NCBI GenBank assembly: GCA_026708185.1
Contig: JAPOVK010000028.1
Coordinates: 1-59,645 of the forward strand
Direction: 5' to 3'
DNA length: 59,645 nucleotides
Source: Gammaproteobacteria bacterium
Lineage (GTDB): Bacteria > Pseudomonadota > Gammaproteobacteria > Pseudomonadales > Azotimanducaceae
In this document: piece after piece, positions 2,644 to 59,645 of the stretch
Layout: every line of letters begins with the position of its first letter
How positions within the stretch are numbered: position 1 is the first letter of the stretch
The notes under the pieces: model-generated
Seen by the model: the letters and a program-made list of their open reading frames with translations, nothing else
Database searches by the model: none
Told to the model about the DNA's origin: nothing
Made by a program: the position numbers and the translations under genes

Positions 2644-5600
2644 ATGACCACCGACGTAACGTCACACCATGTGCCCGTCGTGCCCGCGCCACACCTTCAG
2701 CACAACTGGCAGGGGCTCCACGGCAGCGCTTCGAGTCTCATGGCCGCGCGGCTCGCGACGTCGGCAGACCACCTGGTCGTCTACGTCGCCACCGACACCG
2801 ACGCCGCCTTCCACGCCCAGGCGGAAATCCGCTTCTACGCGCCGCCCAACGTGCGGGTACTGACCTTCCCGGACTGGGAAACCCTCGCCTACGACCACTT
2901 CTCGGCGCACCAGGACATCATCTCCGAGCGCCTGGCCACGCTCTATGAACTGCCGTCGACAAGCGGCGGCCTCCTGGTCCTCCCGGTCAGCACGCTGCTG
3001 CAACGGCTCGCACCCGTCGAGTTCGTGCAGAGCCAGTCACTCATCCTGGAAGTCGGGGCGCGGTTCGACCTCGATGCTGAGCGGCAACGGCTGACCCGTG
3101 CGGGATACCGGGCTGCGGACACGGTTTCCGAACGCGGTGAGTTCGCGGTTCGCGGCTCGCTCGTCGATGTATTCCCCATGGGTACCGCCAACCCCATCCG
3201 GATTGACCTGTTCGACGACGAAATCGACACCCTGCGCATCTTCGACGCCGACAGCCAACGGACCGTCAATTCAACGCGCAGCGTACGTATCCTTCCGGCG
3301 CGGGAGACGCCCCTGGACACGGTCGGGATAGCGCGTTTCCGCGACGCGTGGCATCGCACATTCGACGTGGACGTGCGCAACTGCCAGATCTACCAGGACG
3401 TCAGTACCGGCTTCGCTCCGCAAGGCGTCGAGTACTACCTGCCGCTGTTCTTCGAGGCTACCGCGACCCTGTTCGAGTACCTACCAGCGGACACTGTGTT
3501 CGTCCTCGAGGCGGGCGTGGCCGATGCCGCCAGGCGCCACATCGAGGACGTCGCCGGCCGGTACGAGTCGCTGCGCTACGACGTGGAGCGCCCGATTCTG
3601 CCCCCGGATGCGCTATTCCTGTCCGCTACCGACCTCGATACCCGTCTGAAGCGCTACGGGCGCGCCCGCCTGGATCCGACCGCCGCGAGGCGGCGCCACC
3701 GCGTCGACTTCGGTGGCCGCCAACTGCCCGACGTCGCGGCGAACCACCGCGCGAGGGATCCGGCGGCCAGGCTGCGCAGTTTCACCGCGAACACCGCAGC
3801 GCGCGTGCTGCTGACGGCCGAGACGCCGGGCCGCAAGGTGCACCTCGACGACTTCCTGCGCCGCGAAGGCCTATCCGGGACCGACGTCGAGGACTTCGCC
3901 GCGTTCGCCACCGGCGATACCGCGCTCGGCCTCGCCATAGCACCCATCGAGCGTGGGTTCTGGTTCGACGACATCGCCGTGGTCACGGAGACGGAAATCT
4001 TCGGTCACCGCAGCGAAGCCGCCACCGAGCGCGCCCGGCGGCAGGCCATCGACCCCGACCTGGTGATCAAGAATCTGATCGAGTTGACGCCGGGAGCGCC
4101 CGTCGTGCACATCGACCATGGGGTCGGCCGCTACCGGGGGCTGCAGGCGTTTACCGTTGATGACCACGACGTTGAATTCCTGACCATCGAATACGCCGAG
4201 GACGCCAAGCTCTACGTGCCGGTGACGGCTCTGCATCTCGTCTCCCGGTACGCGGGCGCCAACGAGGACAGCGCGCCGCTGCACCGGCTCGGCTCCGACC
4301 AGTGGGCCAAGGCCAAGCGGCGTGCCGCCGAACAGGCCCGCGACGTCGCCGCGGAACTCCTCGACATCTACGCGCGCCGGGAGGCCGCCACGAGCTATGC
4401 CTTCCATCCCCCCGACGACGACTATCGACGCTTCGTGGAGCAGTTCCCGTTCGAGGCCACGCCCGACCAGGACGCCACCATCGATACGGTGATCGAGGAT
4501 CTCACCAGCGCCCAGGCCACCGACCGGCTGGTCTGCGGCGACGTCGGCTTCGGCAAGACGGAAGTCGCCATGCGCGCGGCCTTTCTCGCCGTCGCCAGCG
4601 GCCGCCAGGTGGCTGTGCTGGCACCGACAACGCTCCTCGCGCAGCAGCACTTCGAGACCTTCTCGGACCGCTTCTCAGACTGGCCGCTGACGGTAGAAGT
4701 GGTCTCGCGCCTGCGCAACGAAAGCGACGTCAAGACCGTCGCCGCGCGCCTTTCCAGCGGGCGCGTCGACGTGGTGATCGGCACACACCGCTTGCTCGCC
4801 AAGGCCTTCCGTTTCAAGCGCCTTGGGCTGGTCATCATCGACGAGGAGCACCGCTTCGGCGTGCGCCAAAAGGAACAACTGAAGAGCCTGCGGGCGGAGG
4901 TGGACGTGTTGGCGCTGACGGCGACGCCGATCCCGCGCACGCTCAACCTGTCCTTGAGCGGGCTGCGCGACCTGTCGGTGATCGCCACCCCCCCGGCCCA
5001 ACGGCTGGCCATCAAGACCTTCGTCATGGAGCGGCGCCGGGCCGTGATCGCTGAAGCGATCGCCCGCGAACTCGCCCGCGGCGGACAGGTGTTCTACGTG
5101 CACAACGAGGTCCGCTCCATCGACCGCGCCGCCGACGAAGTGGCGGAACTCGCGCCGCAGGCCCGCATCGGCGTCGGTCACGGGCAGATGCCGAGCCGCC
5201 GCCTCGAACAGGTGATGGCGGACTTCTACCATCGACGCAGCAACGTGCTGGTATGCACGACGATAATCGAGAACGGCATCGACATTCCCAACGCGAACAC
5301 GATCGTCATCAACCGCGCCGACAAGTTCGGCTTGGCCCAGCTCCACCAGCTTCGCGGCCGCGTCGGCCGTTCCCACCGGCAGGCCTACGCCTACCTCATG
5401 ACGCCGCACCCGAAGGCCATGACCGCCGACGCCGTGAAGCGCCTCGATGCCGTGCAGGCGGCGGGCGATCTCGGGATCGGTTTCACGCTCGCCACTCACG
5501 ACCTCGAGATCCGCGGTGCCGGTGAGCTCCTCGGCGACGAGCAGTCGGGCCAGATCGCAAACATCGGCTTCTCGCTGTACATGGAGATGCTCGAACGGGC

Positions 5601-6174
5601 CGTGGCCAGCATCAAGGCCGGCAAGACGCCGCAGATCGACGAGCCCCTGCGTACGAGTCACGAGGTCAACCTGCACGTGCCGGCGCTGATTCCCGACGAC
5701 TACCTGCCCGACGTCCACGCCCGACTCATCATGTACAAGCGAATCGCGGGGGCCACCGACCAGGGAACCCTGGACGAACTCAAGATCGAGATGATCGACC
5801 GCTTCGGACTGCTGCCGGATCCCTTGAACAACCTGTTCCGAACAACGGCGATCAAGCTCAAAGCCTCGCGCCTCGGCATAGACCGCATCGATGTCGGACC
5901 CGCCGGCGGGCGGCTCGAGTTCCGAACCGATACCGCGGTCGATCCGTTCACCGTCGTCAGGCTCGTCCAAGCCGAGCCCAACACCTACCGTTTCCGCGAG
6001 GCCGACGAGCGCGGCCGATTGCTGGTGACCCGGAGGACGGACGAAGCCGAGGATCGATTCGCCTTCGTCGAGCGGCTGATTGAGCGGCTCGCCAGCACGG
6101 CGGCGACAGAAGCGAACGCCCGCGGGCGTGCCGACCGACGCGCTACACCGACGGGCGAGCGACGACGCGCCTAG
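2644..6174 (+). CDS. mfd: Transcription-repair coupling factor Mfd
   Basis: Mfd is an ATP-dependent DNA translocase that removes RNA polymerase stalled at lesions and recruits UvrA. The 1176 residues match the family length. In order there is a UvrB-homology N-terminal part (about 1-350), then the polymerase-interacting domain starting near residue 480 (ELTPGAPVVHIDHGVGRYRG), the helicase core with Walker A GDVGFGKTE near 633 and the DEEH box near 733, and the C-terminal TRCF regulatory domain. The ATG has an AGGA ribosome binding site 8 bp upstream. csiV follows after 18 bp with its own strong site, as in Pseudomonas. Confidence 0.98.
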   Translation: MTTDVTSHHVPVVPAPHLQHNWQGLHGSASSLMAARLATSADHLVVYVATDTDAAFHAQAEIRFYAPPNVRVLTFPDWETLAYDHFSAHQDIISERLATLYELPSTSGGLLVLPVSTLLQRLAPVEFVQSQSLILEVGARFDLDAERQRLTRAGYRAADTVSERGEFAVRGSLVDVFPMGTANPIRIDLFDDEIDTLRIFDADSQRTVNSTRSVRILPARETPLDTVGIARFRDAWHRTFDVDVRNCQIYQDVSTGFAPQGVEYYLPLFFEATATLFEYLPADTVFVLEAGVADAARRHIEDVAGRYESLRYDVERPILPPDALFLSATDLDTRLKRYGRARLDPTAARRRHRVDFGGRQLPDVAANHRARDPAARLRSFTANTAARVLLTAETPGRKVHLDDFLRREGLSGTDVEDFAAFATGDTALGLAIAPIERGFWFDDIAVVTETEIFGHRSEAATERARRQAIDPDLVIKNLIELTPGAPVVHIDHGVGRYRGLQAFTVDDHDVEFLTIEYAEDAKLYVPVTALHLVSRYAGANEDSAPLHRLGSDQWAKAKRRAAEQARDVAAELLDIYARREAATSYAFHPPDDDYRRFVEQFPFEATPDQDATIDTVIEDLTSAQATDRLVCGDVGFGKTEVAMRAAFLAVASGRQVAVLAPTTLLAQQHFETFSDRFSDWPLTVEVVSRLRNESDVKTVAARLSSGRVDVVIGTHRLLAKAFRFKRLGLVIIDEEHRFGVRQKEQLKSLRAEVDVLALTATPIPRTLNLSLSGLRDLSVIATPPAQRLAIKTFVMERRRAVIAEAIARELARGGQVFYVHNEVRSIDRAADEVAELAPQARIGVGHGQMPSRRLEQVMADFYHRRSNVLVCTTIIENGIDIPNANTIVINRADKFGLAQLHQLRGRVGRSHRQAYAYLMTPHPKAMTADAVKRLDAVQAAGDLGIGFTLATHDLEIRGAGELLGDEQSGQIANIGFSLYMEMLERAVASIKAGKTPQIDEPLRTSHEVNLHVPALIPDDYLPDVHARLIMYKRIAGATDQGTLDELKIEMIDRFGLLPDPLNNLFRTTAIKLKASRLGIDRIDVGPAGGRLEFRTDTAVDPFTVVRLVQAEPNTYRFREADERGRLLVTRRTDEAEDRFAFVERLIERLASTAATEANARGRADRRATPTGERRRA

Positions 6175-6192
6175 GCATTCCAGAAAGGAGAC

Positions 6193-7203
6193 ATGCCAGC
6201 GCTGCCCCCAGGCACTGCCACCTCGCGGAAGAGGATCCCGGGCCTGACACTGGTCGCGAGTGCCGTGCTTGTCGTGACGGCCTTTGAAGCGCGGTCCCGG
6301 GAGGCCGAGGACTTCCTCACACAACGCTGGTATCAGCTCGAAGTCATCGTGTTCGAGCGCGGCCCTGCGGACGCCACCGTGCGCCGCATGACCGCTCCCG
6401 AGCGCTACCCGCAAACGATCATGCCGTTCACGAACGCATCCCCCGGCGACGACGCGGTTGCCTTTGCGCCGGAGCCGGTGGTTCGGGACGCCGACGCCGC
6501 GCTTTTCAGCGACCGTCCGCCACCACTCTGGCTGGCCGGCGAGTGCGTCGCGACGCACTGGCTGCCGCCCGCCGGCTGGTCGGATGCCGAAGGCGTGCTA
6601 CCCCACGATCCATGCCTGCCCCCGCCGCCAACGCCCGTCGCGGAAACGGGCGCCGCCGCCGGGCAAGGTCCCGATCCGGCCGCCGGGGACACCGCCCCAG
6701 CGGTCGCAACACCCATCCCGGGGCCATCGTCCCGTGAGCTTGCGCGCCAGGCATTGACGGAGGCGTTTGCGCAGTACGAGCGTCGGCTGTCCGAGAGCAG
6801 TTACATTTGGCATCCCAATCCGCCCGCCATGCGTACCGAGATCAATCGCTTGGGACGACGCTTCGACATCCTCGCCGCGGGTTCCTGGCACCAGGCACTG
6901 CCCCCGCGCGACCAGCCCCAGCCGCTCTTGTTCCAGGCCGGTCAGGGCGACGGCCGCAAGCCCTTCGATGTGGAAGGCTGGCTCGCCGTCACCGTCCAGC
7001 GTTTCGTGCACTTCGAAGTGCGTCTTTGGGTTCGCCTGGACGATGCCGCCTTCGCCCTGGTCAGCGAGAGCCGCCGACTGCGCAGCGGCGAGGTCCACTA
7101 TCTCGATCACCCGGTACTCGGCGTGATCGTGCGCGTCGGGCCAGTGGACGTTCCGGGCGTCCTGCGCGACCAAGCCGAACGACTCGACGCGTTCGGACAA
7201 TGA
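6193..7203 (+). CDS. csiV: CsiV-family protein (peptidoglycan-binding, envelope)
   Basis: The 336-residue exported protein has an N-terminal hydrophobic segment (about residues 15-30) acting as signal or anchor, followed by the family hallmark WYQLEVIVFER. A low-complexity Pro/Ala linker sits in the middle (about residues 138-180), and the second half carries the conserved stretch with ALTEAFAQYERRLSES. CsiV of Pasteurellales/Pseudomonas binds peptidoglycan and is linked to growth in the presence of D-amino acids; that role is from family knowledge. A strong AAAGGAG precedes the ATG. It sits directly after mfd, the same order as in Pseudomonas, and is probably cotranscribed with it and with the ThDP enzyme 7 bp downstream. 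Confidence 0.82.
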   Translation: MPALPPGTATSRKRIPGLTLVASAVLVVTAFEARSREAEDFLTQRWYQLEVIVFERGPADATVRRMTAPERYPQTIMPFTNASPGDDAVAFAPEPVVRDADAALFSDRPPPLWLAGECVATHWLPPAGWSDAEGVLPHDPCLPPPPTPVAETGAAAGQGPDPAAGDTAPAVATPIPGPSSRELARQALTEAFAQYERRLSESSYIWHPNPPAMRTEINRLGRRFDILAAGSWHQALPPRDQPQPLLFQAGQGDGRKPFDVEGWLAVTVQRFVHFEVRLWVRLDDAAFALVSESRRLRSGEVHYLDHPVLGVIVRVGPVDVPGVLRDQAERLDAFGQ

Positions 7204-53781: not shown

Positions 53782-53860
53782 CCTTAGTACCACTCGGACT
53801 CTCCGAACGGTCGGGATTTCCTTACAATCCGATAGGTTGTTCGTTCGCCAACCGCCCGCC

Positions 53861-55588
53861 ATGTACCAGTACAACGCGTTCGACCAGCGTTTCGTCGAGG
53901 AGCGGGTCGAGCAATACCGGGACCAGACCCGACGCTTCCTCGCCGGCGAACTGACGGACGACCAGTTCCTTCAGTTGCGCCTGCGCAACGGCCTCTACAT
54001 CCAGCGTCTGGCGCCCATGCTGCGCATCGCCGTGCCCTATGGGCTGCTGACGGCGACACAGTTGCGCGCCTTGGCCGAGATCACGCGCACTTACGACAAG
54101 GGATACGCCCATCTGTCGACCCGGCAGAACGTCCAGATCAACTGGCCGGAGCTTCGCGTCGTCCCTGACATCCTGGCCGACCTCGCCCGGGTGCAGATGC
54201 ACTGCATCCAGACCAGCGGCAGTTGCATCCGCAACATCACCACGGACCAGTTCGCCGGCGTAGCCGCCGACGAAATCGTCGATCCGCGACCCTATTGCGA
54301 GCTCATGCGGCAGTGGTCCACCTATCACCCCGAGTTCGACTGGCTGCCGCGCAAGTTCAAAATCGCAGTCAATGCCGCGCAAGCGGATCGTGCCGCGATC
54401 CATGTTCACGACATCGGCATCAACATCCGTGCCGGCGACGACGGTAGACCCCGATTCGACTTCCTGGTCGGCGGAGGCTTGGGCCGCACGCCGGTCATCG
54501 GCAGCCTGATCCGCGAGGGTTTGCCCGAACAACACCTGCTGACCTACCTCGAAGCGATCTTGCGGGTCTACAACCGCTATGGCCGTCGCGACAACAAGTA
54601 CAAGGCACGGATCAAGATCCTCGTGCGCGCCATGACGCCCGGCAAGTTCCGCGCGCAAGTGGACGAGGAGTGGGAGCACCTCCGCGACGGGCCCAGCACG
54701 GTTCCCGACGAAGAGATCCAGCGCATCAAGGCCTGTTTCGTTCCCCACGTGTACGAAGACCTCGTCGACGAGACCCAACTGCTCGCACGCGAGCGCCTAG
54801 CCGACCCGGCCTTCAACGCCTGGATGCAGAATAACGTCGCGCCGCATAAGCGCTCCGGCTACGCGATCGTCACGTTGTCGACCAAGGCCACGGGCGTTCC
54901 GCCCGGCGACGTAACCGAAGAACAAATGGACGCTGTGGCCGATTTCGCCGAGCGTTTCGGATTCGGGGAAATCCGCATCTCGCACGAGCAGAATTTCATT
55001 CTCCCGGACGTCCCGCAGAAGCACCTTCTAGCAGTCTACGAGCTAGCATCCGAACAAGCGCTCGGTCAAGCCAACGTCGGGCTCCTCACGGACATGATCT
55101 GCTGCCCGGGCGGCGACTTCTGCTCGCTGGCGAACGCGAAGTCCATTCCCATCGCCGAAGCAATCCAAAGGCGTTTCGACGACTACGACTACCTGCACGA
55201 TCTCGGGCCCCTCGACATCAACATCTCGGGTTGCATGAACGCCTGCGGCCATCACCACGTCGGTCACATAGGCATTCTCGGCGTGGATAAGCGCGGCGAC
55301 GAGTTCTACCAGATCTCGATTGGTGGCAATCAGGCCAAGGACGCCTCCCTAGGGCGCATTCTCGGCCCGTCGTTCAAACGCGCCGACGTGCCGGACGTCA
55401 TCGACCGGATCTTGGCGGTCTACGTGGACAACCGGTTGGACGGGGAGCCGTTCCTGCACACCGTGCGCCGCATCGGCATCGAGCCGTTCAAGGCGCACGT
55501 CTACGGAGTTGCAGAGCCCTCAGCCGGGGAGCGCGAGGGGCCCGCCCCTCGCATGAAAGAACCGCCCGCATTGCGACGCGCCGGGTAG
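53861..55588 (+). CDS. cysI: Nitrite/sulfite reductase, siroheme hemoprotein
   Basis: The 575-residue protein reduces sulfite (or nitrite) by six electrons using siroheme coupled to a 4Fe-4S cluster. The two ferredoxin-like half domains are present. The cluster ligands appear as CCPGGDFC and CMNACGHHH in the second half. Basic residues for siroheme lie around LSTRQNVQINWP. A -10-like TACAAT lies at 53823. The following DUF934 gene is the usual partner of this type. The last about 24 residues (AEPSAGEREGPAPRMKE..) are encoded by a family 1 repeat and extend beyond the normal end at YGVA. Confidence 0.9.
   Translation: MYQYNAFDQRFVEERVEQYRDQTRRFLAGELTDDQFLQLRLRNGLYIQRLAPMLRIAVPYGLLTATQLRALAEITRTYDKGYAHLSTRQNVQINWPELRVVPDILADLARVQMHCIQTSGSCIRNITTDQFAGVAADEIVDPRPYCELMRQWSTYHPEFDWLPRKFKIAVNAAQADRAAIHVHDIGINIRAGDDGRPRFDFLVGGGLGRTPVIGSLIREGLPEQHLLTYLEAILRVYNRYGRRDNKYKARIKILVRAMTPGKFRAQVDEEWEHLRDGPSTVPDEEIQRIKACFVPHVYEDLVDETQLLARERLADPAFNAWMQNNVAPHKRSGYAIVTLSTKATGVPPGDVTEEQMDAVADFAERFGFGEIRISHEQNFILPDVPQKHLLAVYELASEQALGQANVGLLTDMICCPGGDFCSLANAKSIPIAEAIQRRFDDYDYLHDLGPLDINISGCMNACGHHHVGHIGILGVDKRGDEFYQISIGGNQAKDASLGRILGPSFKRADVPDVIDRILAVYVDNRLDGEPFLHTVRRIGIEPFKAHVYGVAEPSAGEREGPAPRMKEPPALRRAG
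55514..55554 (-). repeat. Family 1 palindromic repeat inside the end of cysI
   Basis: This is one copy in minus orientation with hairpin GCGAGGGGC-CC-GCCCCTCGC at 55533-55552, preceded by the complement of the GCTCCCCGGCTGAGGGCTC tail. It is translated in frame as the end of the reductase. The loop bases differ from the other copies (AG, AA) while the stem is unchanged. Confidence 0.9.
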
Positions 55589-55598
55589 GCAACTCAAA

Positions 55599-56078
55599 GT
55601 GCCCCAAGTTCCTTGCCTGGTCCGGGACGGTCGGATCGTGGAAGACGAGTGGACGCTCGTGATCGAAGGCGACGCGGCGCCAGGCATCATCGCGCCCTTC
55701 GCCGCGTGGCGGAAGAAGCCGGCAGGCGCGGGCGTCTGGGTGGAGGGCGACGCGGAGGCGGAGGAGATCGGCCCCTTGGTCGCAGCCGCCCCGGTTGTCG
55801 CCGTGCGTTTCCCAGCCATCGTCGACGGGCGAGGCTTGAGTCTCGGCGCGTTGTTGCGCACCCGCTACGGGTTCGTAGGCGAACTGCGCGCCTTCGGGGA
55901 CATCATCCCGGACATCACCGAATACATGCACCGCTGCGGATTCAACGCCTTCGTGCTGCCCGACCTGGAACAAGCCGAAGTCGCCATTGCCTGCATCGGG
56001 CGCATGAGCGACCATTACCAGGCGTCGGTGCGGCAACCCAAGCCGCCGTTTCAAGAACCAACTACGCGACGACCCTAA
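55599..56078 (+). CDS. DUF934 protein (oxidoreductase accessory)
   Basis: The 159-residue protein of the DUF934 family is found next to siroheme sulfite/nitrite reductases in many proteobacteria and is thought to assist them. Seen are VAVRFPAIVDGRGLSLGALLRTRYGFVGELRAFGDIIPD and CGFNAFVLPD, the two conserved blocks. It starts with GTG, 10 bp after the reductase stop. No phosphoadenylyl-sulfate reductase (cysH) follows, which is the more common third member. Confidence 0.86.
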   Translation: MPQVPCLVRDGRIVEDEWTLVIEGDAAPGIIAPFAAWRKKPAGAGVWVEGDAEAEEIGPLVAAAPVVAVRFPAIVDGRGLSLGALLRTRYGFVGELRAFGDIIPDITEYMHRCGFNAFVLPDLEQAEVAIACIGRMSDHYQASVRQPKPPFQEPTTRRP

Positions 56079-57523: not shown

Positions 57524-59539
57524 ATGGACGAGTTCCGAATACGCCTGACGGAAGAGCTGATCCTGCTGATGCTGGACGAGTCGAGCGGCTATCTCGAAAT
57601 GGTGCCGGGTTGGGACTTCTCGTGCGTGATGGCGGGTGCCGTCATCGCCGACCTCGCGTTGGAGGACCGCGTCGACACCGATCTGCAGTCCCTGTATCTC
57701 CTCGACGCCACACCGACTGGGGACCAGCTGCTCGACCCGACACTCCAGGAGATCAGCGGCGCCGAAGAGCATTCGGATACGCAATACTGGATCGAACGCA
57801 ACGCAGCCCGCGCGGAAGACATCGTCACCCTGACCTTGGAGCGGCTGGTGGACAAGGGCGTGCTCGACTACGAGTCGGGTGGGTTTTGGACGCTGTCGCG
57901 CTCGGTTTCGCGAACAGGCGTGTATCCGAGCGCGGACGGCGCGATCCAGAAGGCAGCCAAGGCCCGCATCCTCAACATCGTCCTGAACGACGACATTCCC
58001 GACCCGAGGGACGTCATCCTCGTGGGGCTGATGCACACCTGCGACGGCTTCAAAACGCTTCTGTCGGAGGAAGACTACGAGGAGAAACTCCAGCGCATCG
58101 AGACGGTCGCCCGCATGGATCTCGTCGGGCGGTCCGTGGCCACCGCCGTGAAGGAAAGCACGATCAAACCGAAGGCCCGACCCGTTCTACCCACGAGGCC
58201 GATCCCGAAACTCCCGGTGGTCGACATCCTGCGACAGCGGGATCTCCTCGAAGGCAACATTCCCAAGGCGACGTGCCGCATCTTCGAGGAGCGAGGGCCG
58301 GTGGTCCGGGTGCCAATCACCATGAACGGACAGCCCGTCGTCGCGCTGATGGGGCCGGAATGCAATAGCTGGGTCAACAAGCAAGGGCGTTTCTACCTTC
58401 GATCCAAGGACTACATCCAAGGACTCGAAGGCGTCTTCGGCGCCTCGCGGACGCTGCCGGGCATGGATGGCGCGGAACACCACAAGATGCGCAAATCACT
58501 CCGCACCGCCTACTCCCGGGCGACGCTCGCGCAACGCCTGCCCGAGCTGATCTCCCTGTGCAAAGAGTCGGTCGGCGCATGGAACGAGGGCGACGTTTTC
58601 GGCGCAACGAAGACGTTTCAAAACCACATGAGCAGGCAGGTCTCGCACCTAGTGATGAGCATCGACTGCAGCCACTTCGCCGACGACCTACTCGCTTACG
58701 AGCACCGTGCGCTCGTCACGCACGTTCAAGGCGCACTGCCCAAGTTCATGATGGCGACGCCCAAGATGAGGCGTTCCAGGAAGTATGTGCGCGAACTGCT
58801 CGATGCCATTCACACGTCGCACACGCCTGCTCAGAGAAAAGGCAAGCCCATGGACGTTGCCGATGCCATACTCGAGTTGCATCGGAACGACCCGCAGTTC
58901 CTGCCGGAAACCGACATCACCTTCCCCTTCGTCGCAGCGATGGTCGCCAGCATCTATCTCGGCAGTGCGCTCGGTTTCGCCGTCTACGCAATGGTCAACG
59001 ACCCGGACCTGTACGCCGGCGTCCGCGCGGAAGCCGATTCGCTGTTCGGTGGAGGTCGCGAGCCGCAGGCCGAGGACTTCGGCAACCTCGACAAGATAGA
59101 CATTACGCATCGTCTCTTCCTCGAGTCCGAACGCATGTACCCGGTAATCCCCTGGCAGCTACGAACGGTCATGAACCAATGCGTGGTCAACGGCTTCGAG
59201 TTGCCGCCCAAGACACGGCTGTTGATCTGCCACACCGCGACGCACTACTCCGAGGACCTGTTCAAGGACCCGCTGAAGTTCGAGATCGACCGCTACCTTC
59301 CGGAGCGGTGGGAGCAAATGACGCCGGGCGCCTATGCGCCATACGGACTAGGCACGCACACTTGCCTGGGGCATCGGTGGCTGGAACTGCAGATGGTGGT
59401 GAACCTCCTCGTGATCGCGCACCACTTGGAACTGCAAATGCTGCCGGAGAACTACAAGATGCGCATCAATCCGTTTCCGACGGCAGCACCTAGCAAGAAG
59501 TTGAAGTTCCGCGTTGCCAGGGTTCGAAACCCGGTCTGA
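57524..59539 (+). CDS. GPP34 (GOLPH3-like)-cytochrome P450 fusion protein
   Basis: The 671-residue protein joins two unrelated domains. Residues 4 to about 210 match the GPP34/GOLPH3 phosphoprotein family: LTEELILLMLDESSGYLE, VMAGAVIADLALEDRVD, PTGDQLLDPTLQEI, LERLVDKGVLDYE, then DPRDVILVGLMHTCDGF. Residues about 225-671 are a cytochrome P450. The K-helix E-x-x-R is Glu534/Arg537, and the heme ligand is Cys614 in PYGLGTHTCLG, with Tyr replacing the usual Phe at the start of the motif. The I-helix (AAMVASIYLGSALGF) lacks the usual acid-threonine pair. GPP34 proteins bind phosphoinositide-type lipids in eukaryotes. The ATG has AGAGG upstream. An RND permease begins 13 bp downstream. Confidence 0.88.
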   Translation: MDEFRIRLTEELILLMLDESSGYLEMVPGWDFSCVMAGAVIADLALEDRVDTDLQSLYLLDATPTGDQLLDPTLQEISGAEEHSDTQYWIERNAARAEDIVTLTLERLVDKGVLDYESGGFWTLSRSVSRTGVYPSADGAIQKAAKARILNIVLNDDIPDPRDVILVGLMHTCDGFKTLLSEEDYEEKLQRIETVARMDLVGRSVATAVKESTIKPKARPVLPTRPIPKLPVVDILRQRDLLEGNIPKATCRIFEERGPVVRVPITMNGQPVVALMGPECNSWVNKQGRFYLRSKDYIQGLEGVFGASRTLPGMDGAEHHKMRKSLRTAYSRATLAQRLPELISLCKESVGAWNEGDVFGATKTFQNHMSRQVSHLVMSIDCSHFADDLLAYEHRALVTHVQGALPKFMMATPKMRRSRKYVRELLDAIHTSHTPAQRKGKPMDVADAILELHRNDPQFLPETDITFPFVAAMVASIYLGSALGFAVYAMVNDPDLYAGVRAEADSLFGGGREPQAEDFGNLDKIDITHRLFLESERMYPVIPWQLRTVMNQCVVNGFELPPKTRLLICHTATHYSEDLFKDPLKFEIDRYLPERWEQMTPGAYAPYGLGTHTCLGHRWLELQMVVNLLVIAHHLELQMLPENYKMRINPFPTAAPSKKLKFRVARVRNPV

Positions 59540-59552
59540 CAACACCGCGCGC

Positions 59553-59645
59553 GTGAACGACTATTCGGGGGAGCCGGCCGGACCCATCGGCTATATGGCG
59601 AGCAACGGCGTCGCCGCCAACCTGCTCATGTTAGCGATCCTGGCG
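59553..59645 (+). CDS. RND efflux permease, N-terminal fragment (runs off window)
   Basis: The frame from GTG 59553 to the window end gives 31 residues ending GYMASNGVAANLLMLAILA. The N-x-V-A-A-N-L-L-M start of the first transmembrane helix is typical of RND (AcrB-type) permeases. It begins 13 bp after the GPP34-P450 stop and is probably cotranscribed with it. The remainder lies outside the window. Confidence 0.7.
   Translation, partial: MNDYSGEPAGPIGYMASNGVAANLLMLAILA

What the first reader, a model, noticed from the sequence alone, without database searches (positions are those of the whole stretch)
57524..59539. GPP34 (GOLPH3-like) domain fused to a cytochrome P450
The sequence shows a single uninterrupted frame whose first 210 residues carry the GPP34 block order and whose last 440 residues are a P450 with ExxR and the Cys-ligand loop. 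GOLPH3/Vps74 domains bind phosphoinositide lipids in eukaryotes, and bacterial GPP34 proteins are mainly known from actinobacteria with unknown roles. A P450 tethered to a putative lipid-binding domain, followed directly by an RND permease, suggests oxidation of a membrane lipid or lipid-like product and its export. I have not seen this fusion described.
Basis: partly seen in the sequence, partly recalled or inferred. Interest (0 to 1): 0.82.

Follow-up and report, generated by a model that had tools for sequence, protein, structure and literature searches.

The report
Membrane-domain P450 in sterol-tailoring cluster
A bacterial enzyme that joins a Golgi-type membrane-docking domain to an unusual cytochrome P450 sits beside sterol-methylating, sterol-oxidising and export genes, and probably modifies sterols in bacteria that appear to live in marine sponges.

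Summary
In detail: 57524-59539 is one open frame with GPP34 (E 1.3e-34) and P450 (E 7.6e-32) domains, and an RND pump gene starts 13 bases downstream. It is no assembly artefact: 36 of 39 loci found encode at least 650 residues of the fusion, in MAGs titled Gammaproteobacteria, Acidobacteria, Rhodothermales and others. Phosphoinositide binding is not supported: the Arg97 position of Vps74 is Ala in 43 of 45. New is the context. In 22 loci with full flanks, RND lies nearby in 22, membrane-fusion protein in 21, KshA-type Rieske oxygenase in 14, sterol-methyltransferase-type gene in 14. In 150 genomes of the window's family, 26 of 28 with that methyltransferase and 13 of 13 judged to have an oxidosqualene-cyclase-type hit carry the fusion; in two it lies beside a sterol operon. 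The window's genome has no cyclase hit, so it probably acts on sterols made elsewhere. The P450 lost the acid-alcohol pair (Thr to Tyr in 43 of 45), so plain hydroxylation is doubtful. Best reading: a membrane-docked sterol-tailoring P450 in a modify-and-export cluster. Substrate, product and GPP34 role are untested.

The parts
57524..59539 (+). GPP34-cytochrome P450 fusion, 671 aa plus stop
57545..58156 (+). GPP34 (GOLPH3/Vps74-like) domain, residues 8-211
   Evidence: PF05719 E 1.3e-34; phmmer to Vps74 4.5e-6 and GOLPH3 3.8e-5
58205..59491 (+). cytochrome P450 domain, residues 228-656
   Evidence: PF00067 E 7.6e-32; best PDB sequence match CYP46A1, 3.4e-18; the 50 Foldseek rows shown are P450s
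58943..58966 (+). I-helix motif V474-A-S-I-Y478-L-G-S481 in place of AGx(D/E)T
59123..59134 (+). ExxR motif E534-R537
   Evidence: invariant in 45 of 45
59339..59371 (+). haem-ligand loop PYGLGTHTCLG, Cys614
59553..59645 (+). first 93 bases of the RND (AcrB-type) transporter gene; continues on contig C31 of the same genome to base 3163
   Evidence: 55-base identical overlap of contig ends; ACR_tran E 2.2e-152 on C31

Best explanation
The gene is the P450 of a sterol-tailoring and export cluster shared by several bacterial groups. Shown: one chain with GPP34 and P450; RND starts 13 bases after it; in the same genome an SMT-type methyltransferase, a membrane-fusion protein and a KshA-type Rieske protein follow on the abutting contig end; the set recurs in rearranged orders; fusion carriers and sterol genes co-occur, and in two genomes they lie side by side. 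Inferred: the GPP34 domain docks the otherwise soluble P450 on the inner membrane, doing the job that a transmembrane helix does for eukaryotic sterol P450s (recalled); the P450 acts on a sterol (side chain or ring) dissolved in the membrane; SMT and Rieske act on the same scaffold; the RND pump moves the product out. In the window's genus, where no cyclase was found, the substrate is probably taken from a host or neighbour; in other genera it can be made de novo. Because the acid-alcohol pair is gone, the P450 may use peroxide or do a rearrangement, dehydration or C-C cleavage rather than plain hydroxylation.
For: Pfam of the window's own cluster: Sterol_MT_C 5.7e-18 (over cut-off), KshA_C 1.3e-19, Rieske 2.5e-19, HlyD_3 8.3e-11, ACR_tran 2.2e-152. 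Neighbours in the 22 loci with full flanks (hits of 100 bits or more to HMMs built here): RND 22, MFP 21, OEP 16, Rieske 14, SMT 14, FAD oxidase 6, MPAB 3; 20 of 22 have Rieske or SMT, 8 both. Co-occurrence in 150 family genomes: fusion 33, SMT 28 (26 shared), Rieske 26 (24 shared), Fisher p 1.5e-20 and 2.8e-18, not corrected for kinship; the two exceptions are MAGs 64% and 71% complete. OSC-type cyclase hits in 13 genomes, all carriers; SHC-type in 6, none a carrier (types judged by score and frame length). Fusion beside SMT, SDR, Rieske, ERG24, CYP51 and squalene epoxidase-cyclase in G172 and G190, 2 of the 6 genomes fetched. Best PDB sequence match is cholesterol 24-hydroxylase.
Against: No substrate or product is known. 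7 of 33 carriers had no SMT hit and 9 no Rieske hit (3 neither) at the cut-offs used; 2 of 22 full-flank loci have neither nearby. In G172, G190, G196 and G125 the RND proteins near the fusion score only 38-260 bits against about 2,000 for the usual cluster pump, and G188 has none over the cut-off, so the export part is not shared by that branch. In 4 of the 6 genomes no sterol operon lies in the fetched stretch. The CYP46A1 match is weak (about 20% identity) and fatty-acid P450s score as well in Foldseek. The best NCBIfam scores were to terpenoid and RiPP P450s far below cut-off. Two distant fusions (L081, L082) have no cluster genes detected around them, though L081 is short. AcrB-type RND pumps are often drug exporters (recalled).
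Confidence: 0.7

Rival explanations
1. Sterol catabolism or detoxification: the P450 and the KshA-type Rieske oxygenase start the breakdown of host sterols, and the RND pump expels toxic intermediates.
For: KshA_C is the domain of a steroid-degrading oxygenase; the own genome has an extradiol dioxygenase like TIGR03213 (308 bits, below the 366-bit cut-off) at C34:27913 (5 of 14 control genomes also ring below the cut-off).
Against: That dioxygenase lies between frames that read as an HpaB-type monooxygenase and an FAA-hydrolase-type protein, an aromatic meta-cleavage set by eye, not scanned with Pfam. A C-24 methyltransferase adds carbon and has no obvious place in degradation. Some carriers make sterols de novo, in two beside the fusion. 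Other steroid-degradation genes were not searched for.
Confidence: 0.15
2. The substrate is another membrane isoprenoid (hopanoid, carotenoid, quinone or meroterpenoid), and the SMT-type enzyme methylates that scaffold.
For: P450 profile hits lean to terpenoid oxygenases, all far below cut-off; SHC-type cyclases occur in five Acidobacteria carriers; the window's genome and the other carriers of its genus searched have no cyclase hit.
Against: Sterol_MT_C passes its cut-off in the three cluster methyltransferases scanned; in the window's family none of the 6 SHC-type genomes carries the fusion, whereas the 13 OSC-type genomes do.
Confidence: 0.12
3. The GPP34 domain is a protein-protein adaptor that gathers cluster enzymes, or links membrane proteins to other structures, rather than a membrane anchor.
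For: GOLPH3/Vps74 also bind client glycosyltransferases (recalled); the PI4P-pocket arginine is not kept; standalone GPP34 copies exist in the same genome; the authors of the SCO4440 paper suggest a link between membrane proteins and cytoskeleton (PMC12402492, passages).
Against: Nothing here tests binding partners; the domain is complete by profile.
Confidence: 0.3
4. Assembly join or chance fusion.
For: The gene lies near a contig end of a metagenome-assembled genome.
Against: The same fusion in 36 of 39 loci and, over at least residues 8-659, in 31 of 150 family genomes, among them the one-contig genome G124; one of the 31, G179, has an internal stop.
Confidence: 0.01

Closest known systems
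Bacterial sterol methyltransferases of sponge symbionts (Brown et al. 2023, PMC10070321; part 1 of 7 and passages read)
   Same: Sterol_MT_C methyltransferases in uncultured, partly sponge-associated bacteria, some in sterol gene clusters
   Different: The main text has 0 occurrences of P450, Rieske, RND or Golgi; this tailoring and export cluster is not described under those words; supplements were not seen
Clusters of steroid genes in Ircinia symbionts (Kelly et al. 2022, PMC9531527; passages read)
   Same: ERG24-CYP51-LSS operons, often flanked by SMT, spread across phyla; like the operon beside the fusion in G172 and G190
   Different: The core is synthesis, with CYP51; 0 occurrences of Rieske, RND or Golgi, and P450 only in a reference title
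SCO4440, GOLPH3-like protein of Streptomyces coelicolor (PMC12402492; passages read)
   Same: A bacterial GPP34-domain protein
   Different: Paired with a D-Ala-D-Ala carboxypeptidase gene and tied to peptidoglycan dimers; the text has 0 occurrences of P450
BstABC sterol transport of Methylococcus capsulatus (PMC10942540; passages read)
   Same: An RND-superfamily protein (BstA) handles sterols
   Different: BstA is predicted there to resemble HpnN; here the pump is an AcrB-type RND with HlyD-type and often OEP partners
GOLPH3 / Vps74
   Same: GPP34 domain
   Different: PI4P-pocket Arg97 is Ala/Gly/Val in 45 of 45; joined to a P450
CYP51 and CYP46A1 sterol P450s
   Same: P450 fold; CYP46A1 is the best PDB sequence match, both among the top folds
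   Different: About 20% identity or less; AGx(D/E)T replaced; GPP34 in front
CYP51-ferredoxin fusion of M. capsulatus
   Same: A bacterial sterol P450 joined to a second domain (PDB 6mcw)
   Different: There the partner is a ferredoxin; here it is GPP34

Membership tests
GPP34 (PF05719) | Pfam profile over the gathering score | tested here: met
   120.5 bits against 29.1, positions 1-200 of 201
GOLPH3/Vps74 PI4P effectors | basic PI4P pocket (Arg97 and others of Vps74; roles recalled) | tested here: not met
   Arg97 column A43 G1 V1 of 45; the other two positions read by hand only
Cytochrome P450 superfamily | profile, ExxR and Cys ligand | tested here: met
   PF00067 111.1 bits against 22.8; E534, R537, C614 in 45 of 45
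Canonical P450 monooxygenases | acid-alcohol pair AGx(D/E)T in the I helix (recalled) | tested here: not met
   Tyr at the Thr column in 43 of 45 and one residue fewer at the acid; Thr and Asp kept only in L081, L082; HMMER alignment to CYP102L1 agrees, that to CYP46A1 places gaps differently
Sterol C-24 methyltransferase (neighbour) | Sterol_MT_C domain with SAM methyltransferase domain | tested here: met
   5.7e-18 in the own genome, 3.5e-16 in L007, 1.8e-13 in L099
Sterol C-24 methyltransferase (neighbour) | activity on desmosterol or 24-methylenecholesterol | not testable with these tools
   needs an enzyme assay
De novo bacterial sterol synthesis | oxidosqualene cyclase in the same genome | tested here: not met
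   No PF13243 hit in the window's genome, a MAG 97% complete; met in other carriers
Tripartite RND efflux | RND, membrane-fusion and outer-membrane proteins together | tested here: inconclusive
   RND and MFP near each other in the own genome; no OEP hit in C31:1-20000; OEP in 16 of 22 full-flank loci

The most novel reading that the evidence does not exclude
A new class of sterol-tailoring P450 that is not a classical monooxygenase: it lost the acid-alcohol pair (Thr to Tyr, acid removed), docks on the membrane through a GOLPH3-fold domain in place of a transmembrane helix, and with a C-24 methyltransferase and a KshA-type Rieske oxygenase makes exported, side-chain- and ring-modified sterols. 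The cluster has spread across symbiont phyla, so that bacteria without their own cyclase remodel host or neighbour sterols.
Probability: 0.3. Interest if true: 0.88.

Novelty: new variant of a known kind. Interest (0 to 1): 0.73.

Why it matters
It ties a bacterial GPP34 domain to a concrete pathway, sterols, where the one bacterial role I found in print concerns the cell wall. It gives a testable candidate set (P450, Rieske, SMT, RND) for the disputed bacterial share in unusual sponge sterols and thus in sterane biomarkers (question as put in PMC10070321), and it offers a P450 whose usual oxygen-activation motif is gone.

Tried and rejected
Rejected: assembly artefact; phosphoinositide binding as the working idea; a hopanoid link in the window's family (none of 6 SHC-type genomes is a carrier); steroid degradation as first choice. 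Led nowhere: standalone GPP34 neighbourhoods in the own genus showed no shared theme by eye and were not scanned with Pfam; the plasmid search found only a distant P450 (1 record, 59% of the query). None of the ten literature searches listed a paper on the fusion by title or abstract start; not every hit was listed (30 of 49, 15 of 27, 10 of 25), and the bulk is the insecticidal protein Gpp34. The 50 Foldseek rows shown of 1,668 matches are P450s, so the GPP34 fold rests on sequence profiles. The clustering used greedily chosen frames; one cluster (c6) looked like antisense reading and was dropped. From then on, HMMs built from these loci were used, so the loci that built them match by construction; the Pfam scans are the independent check on representatives. 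L040 was dropped from the count (38 of 39 kept); L039-L041 were left out of the alignment and of the cyclase search. Horizontal transfer between phyla is suggested by 66-72% identity between phyla and by Acidobacteria rows in two places of a quick tree, but labels cluster by phylum (5 changes against a least possible 3; shuffled mean 16.2), they come from record titles, and some bins may be wrong (for example L018, called Aminicenantes, on a 5.8-kb contig).

Full report
Observation. The frame 57524-59539 encodes 671 aa. Pfam finds GPP34 at residues 8-211 (E 1.3e-34) and p450 at 228-656 (E 7.6e-32), both far over their cut-offs. The GPP34 part also matches solved Vps74 (4.5e-6) and GOLPH3 (3.8e-5) by sequence, and the P450 part matches human cholesterol 24-hydroxylase CYP46A1 best (3.4e-18). 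An AlphaFold2 model on an alignment of 45 sequences has mean pLDDT 85.6 and pTM 0.79; the 50 Foldseek rows shown are P450s, among them CYP184A1, CYP102A5, CYP46A1 and CYP51.

Not an artefact. One scan of genome contigs (84,980 species) with six peptide patterns of the window protein gave 39 loci, 36 of them encoding at least 650 of 671 residues at 55-92% identity; the other three stop at contig ends. This scan reaches close relatives only. In 150 genomes drawn from the window's family, 33 have a match at E <= 1e-60, 31 of these over at least residues 8-659; the other two are G010, split by a contig break, and G108, partial; one of the 31, G179, has an internal stop. Record titles name Gammaproteobacteria, Pseudomonadales, Acidobacteria, Bryobacterales, Rhodothermales and one Aminicenantes bin, among others. 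Bin names such as RHO, COS and IRC fit the sponges Rhopaloeides, Coscinoderma and Ircinia of Robbins et al. 2021 (PMC8163846, passages only); that link, and a sponge origin of other bins, is my inference.

The neighbour downstream. The window ends inside the RND gene. Its last 55 bases equal the first 55 of contig C31 of the same genome, where the RND frame continues. C31 then carries a methyltransferase with Sterol_MT_C (3114-4214, +), an HlyD-type membrane-fusion protein (4385-5593, -) and a Rieske oxygenase with KshA_C (5632-6759, -). L007 and L008 hold the same order on one contig, with an OEP gene added before the Rieske gene. A 55-base overlap by itself could be a repeat; the relatives make the adjacency very likely.

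A conserved cluster. Among the 22 loci with full 8-kb flanks, RND is present in 22, membrane-fusion protein in 21, OEP in 16, Rieske in 14, SMT in 14, an FAD oxidase in 6 and an MPAB-type oxygenase in 3, at 100 bits or more to HMMs built from these loci; 20 have Rieske or SMT, 8 both, and L012 and L032 neither. Orders and orientations differ between groups, which argues for a functional link. Pfam identified representatives of each. Many loci are kin, so these are not 22 independent events.

Link to sterols. In the same 150 family genomes, 28 have a close methyltransferase (E <= 1e-30), 26 of them carriers; 26 have a close Rieske protein (E <= 1e-60), 24 of them carriers; the two exceptions, G181 and G195, are 64% and 71% complete (Fisher p 1.5e-20 and 2.8e-18, not corrected for shared ancestry). 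Seven carriers lack an SMT hit, nine a Rieske hit and three both. Twenty genomes have a PF13243 hit at E <= 1e-20: 13 that I judge OSC type by score and by frames of 1,125-1,300 aa (G190 only as fragments), all carriers; six of SHC type, none a carrier; one partial hit, G158, unresolved and not a carrier. Two of the long proteins were scanned and are squalene epoxidase-cyclase fusions: L097 from G056, which is outside the 150, and L100 from G172. In G172 and G190 the fusion lies within about 8 kb of SMT, hydrolase, SDR, Rieske, ERG24, CYP51 and this epoxidase-cyclase, which in G190 runs off the contig (Pfam on the G172 genes). In the other four genomes fetched (G120, G125, G188, G196) no such operon lies in the stretch. 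In G172, G190, G196 and G125 the RND proteins nearby are of another kind (38-260 bits), so the same pump is not part of that branch. The window's genome has none, nor have the other seven carriers of its genus in the 150-genome draw.

An unusual P450. ExxR and the haem cysteine are invariant in 45 of 45. At the column of the I-helix Thr, 43 of 45 have Tyr, and the motif is one residue shorter where the acid belongs; only the two distant fusions L081 and L082 keep AGLDT; L056 has an Asp four residues later. HMMER's alignment to CYP102L1 places the gap and Tyr478 in the same way; its alignment to CYP46A1 gaps the helix differently. Loss of this pair is known from P450s that do not do classical oxygen activation (recalled), so the reaction is open.

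What the GPP34 part does. Vps74 Arg97 corresponds to Ala37 (A43, G1, V1 of 45), so phosphoinositide binding is not expected. Membrane docking of the P450 is the simplest role, inferred from the fold's known function (recalled) and from a substrate class that lives in membranes. GPP34 was found in 3 of 299 genomes of the phylum, the own genome with four copies. Standalone copies occur in G012 and G013, where fusion, SMT and Rieske were not found, so the domain may have been borrowed from a resident family. In Streptomyces the GOLPH3-like SCO4440 affects peptidoglycan dimers (PMC12402492, passages).

Comparison with what is known. Kelly et al. 2022 (passages) describe ERG24-CYP51-LSS clusters with SMT in Ircinia symbionts; Brown et al. 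2023 (part 1 of 7 and passages) show active bacterial SMTs. Word searches of both main texts gave no Rieske, RND or Golgi; P450 occurs in Kelly only in a reference title. BstA of Methylococcus is an RND-superfamily sterol handler (PMC10942540, passages). The fusion and its tailoring-export cluster were not found in the ten literature searches made, which cover open-licence papers only.

Verdict. The fusion is real, widespread and anchored in sterol biology. That it is a membrane-docked sterol-tailoring P450 is likely but rests on context.

Noticed in passing
L097:8677-12069 (-), L100:6534-10019 (+): Squalene epoxidase and oxidosqualene cyclase fused in one chain of 1,130 and 1,161 aa; frames of similar length carry the OSC-type hit in 12 of the 13 family genomes. 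Whether this fusion is described was not searched.
   Followed up: partly
L022:8001-13624; L102:5970-16125: Two fusion genes in one neighbourhood, in an Acidobacteria bin (L022) and in G120 (L102, the same contig stretch as L015), where they are of different branches (45% and 70% identical to the window).
   Followed up: partly
L095 (G007:C14:1-12000), about 404-2393: GPP34 and P450 parts lie in adjacent, different frames: a natural split or a frameshift in this MAG.
   Followed up: no
L025:6424-7803 (-) and relatives: A conserved FAD amine-oxidase-type protein belongs to the cluster in 8 loci: seven Acidobacteria-type bins and one Rhodothermales bin (L020).
   Followed up: partly
L106:12424-15624: HpaB-like monooxygenase, two-domain extradiol dioxygenase and FAA-hydrolase-like protein: a small aromatic meta-cleavage set in the window's genome, named by eye except for the dioxygenase.
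   Followed up: partly
L065 about 9305; L066 about 3206; L067 about 8747: Three standalone GPP34 paralogues in the same genome with no shared neighbourhood seen.
   Followed up: partly
window 53837-56078: Nitrite/sulphite reductase-type protein followed by a DUF934 protein, a usual sulphite-reduction pair (pairing recalled).
   Followed up: no
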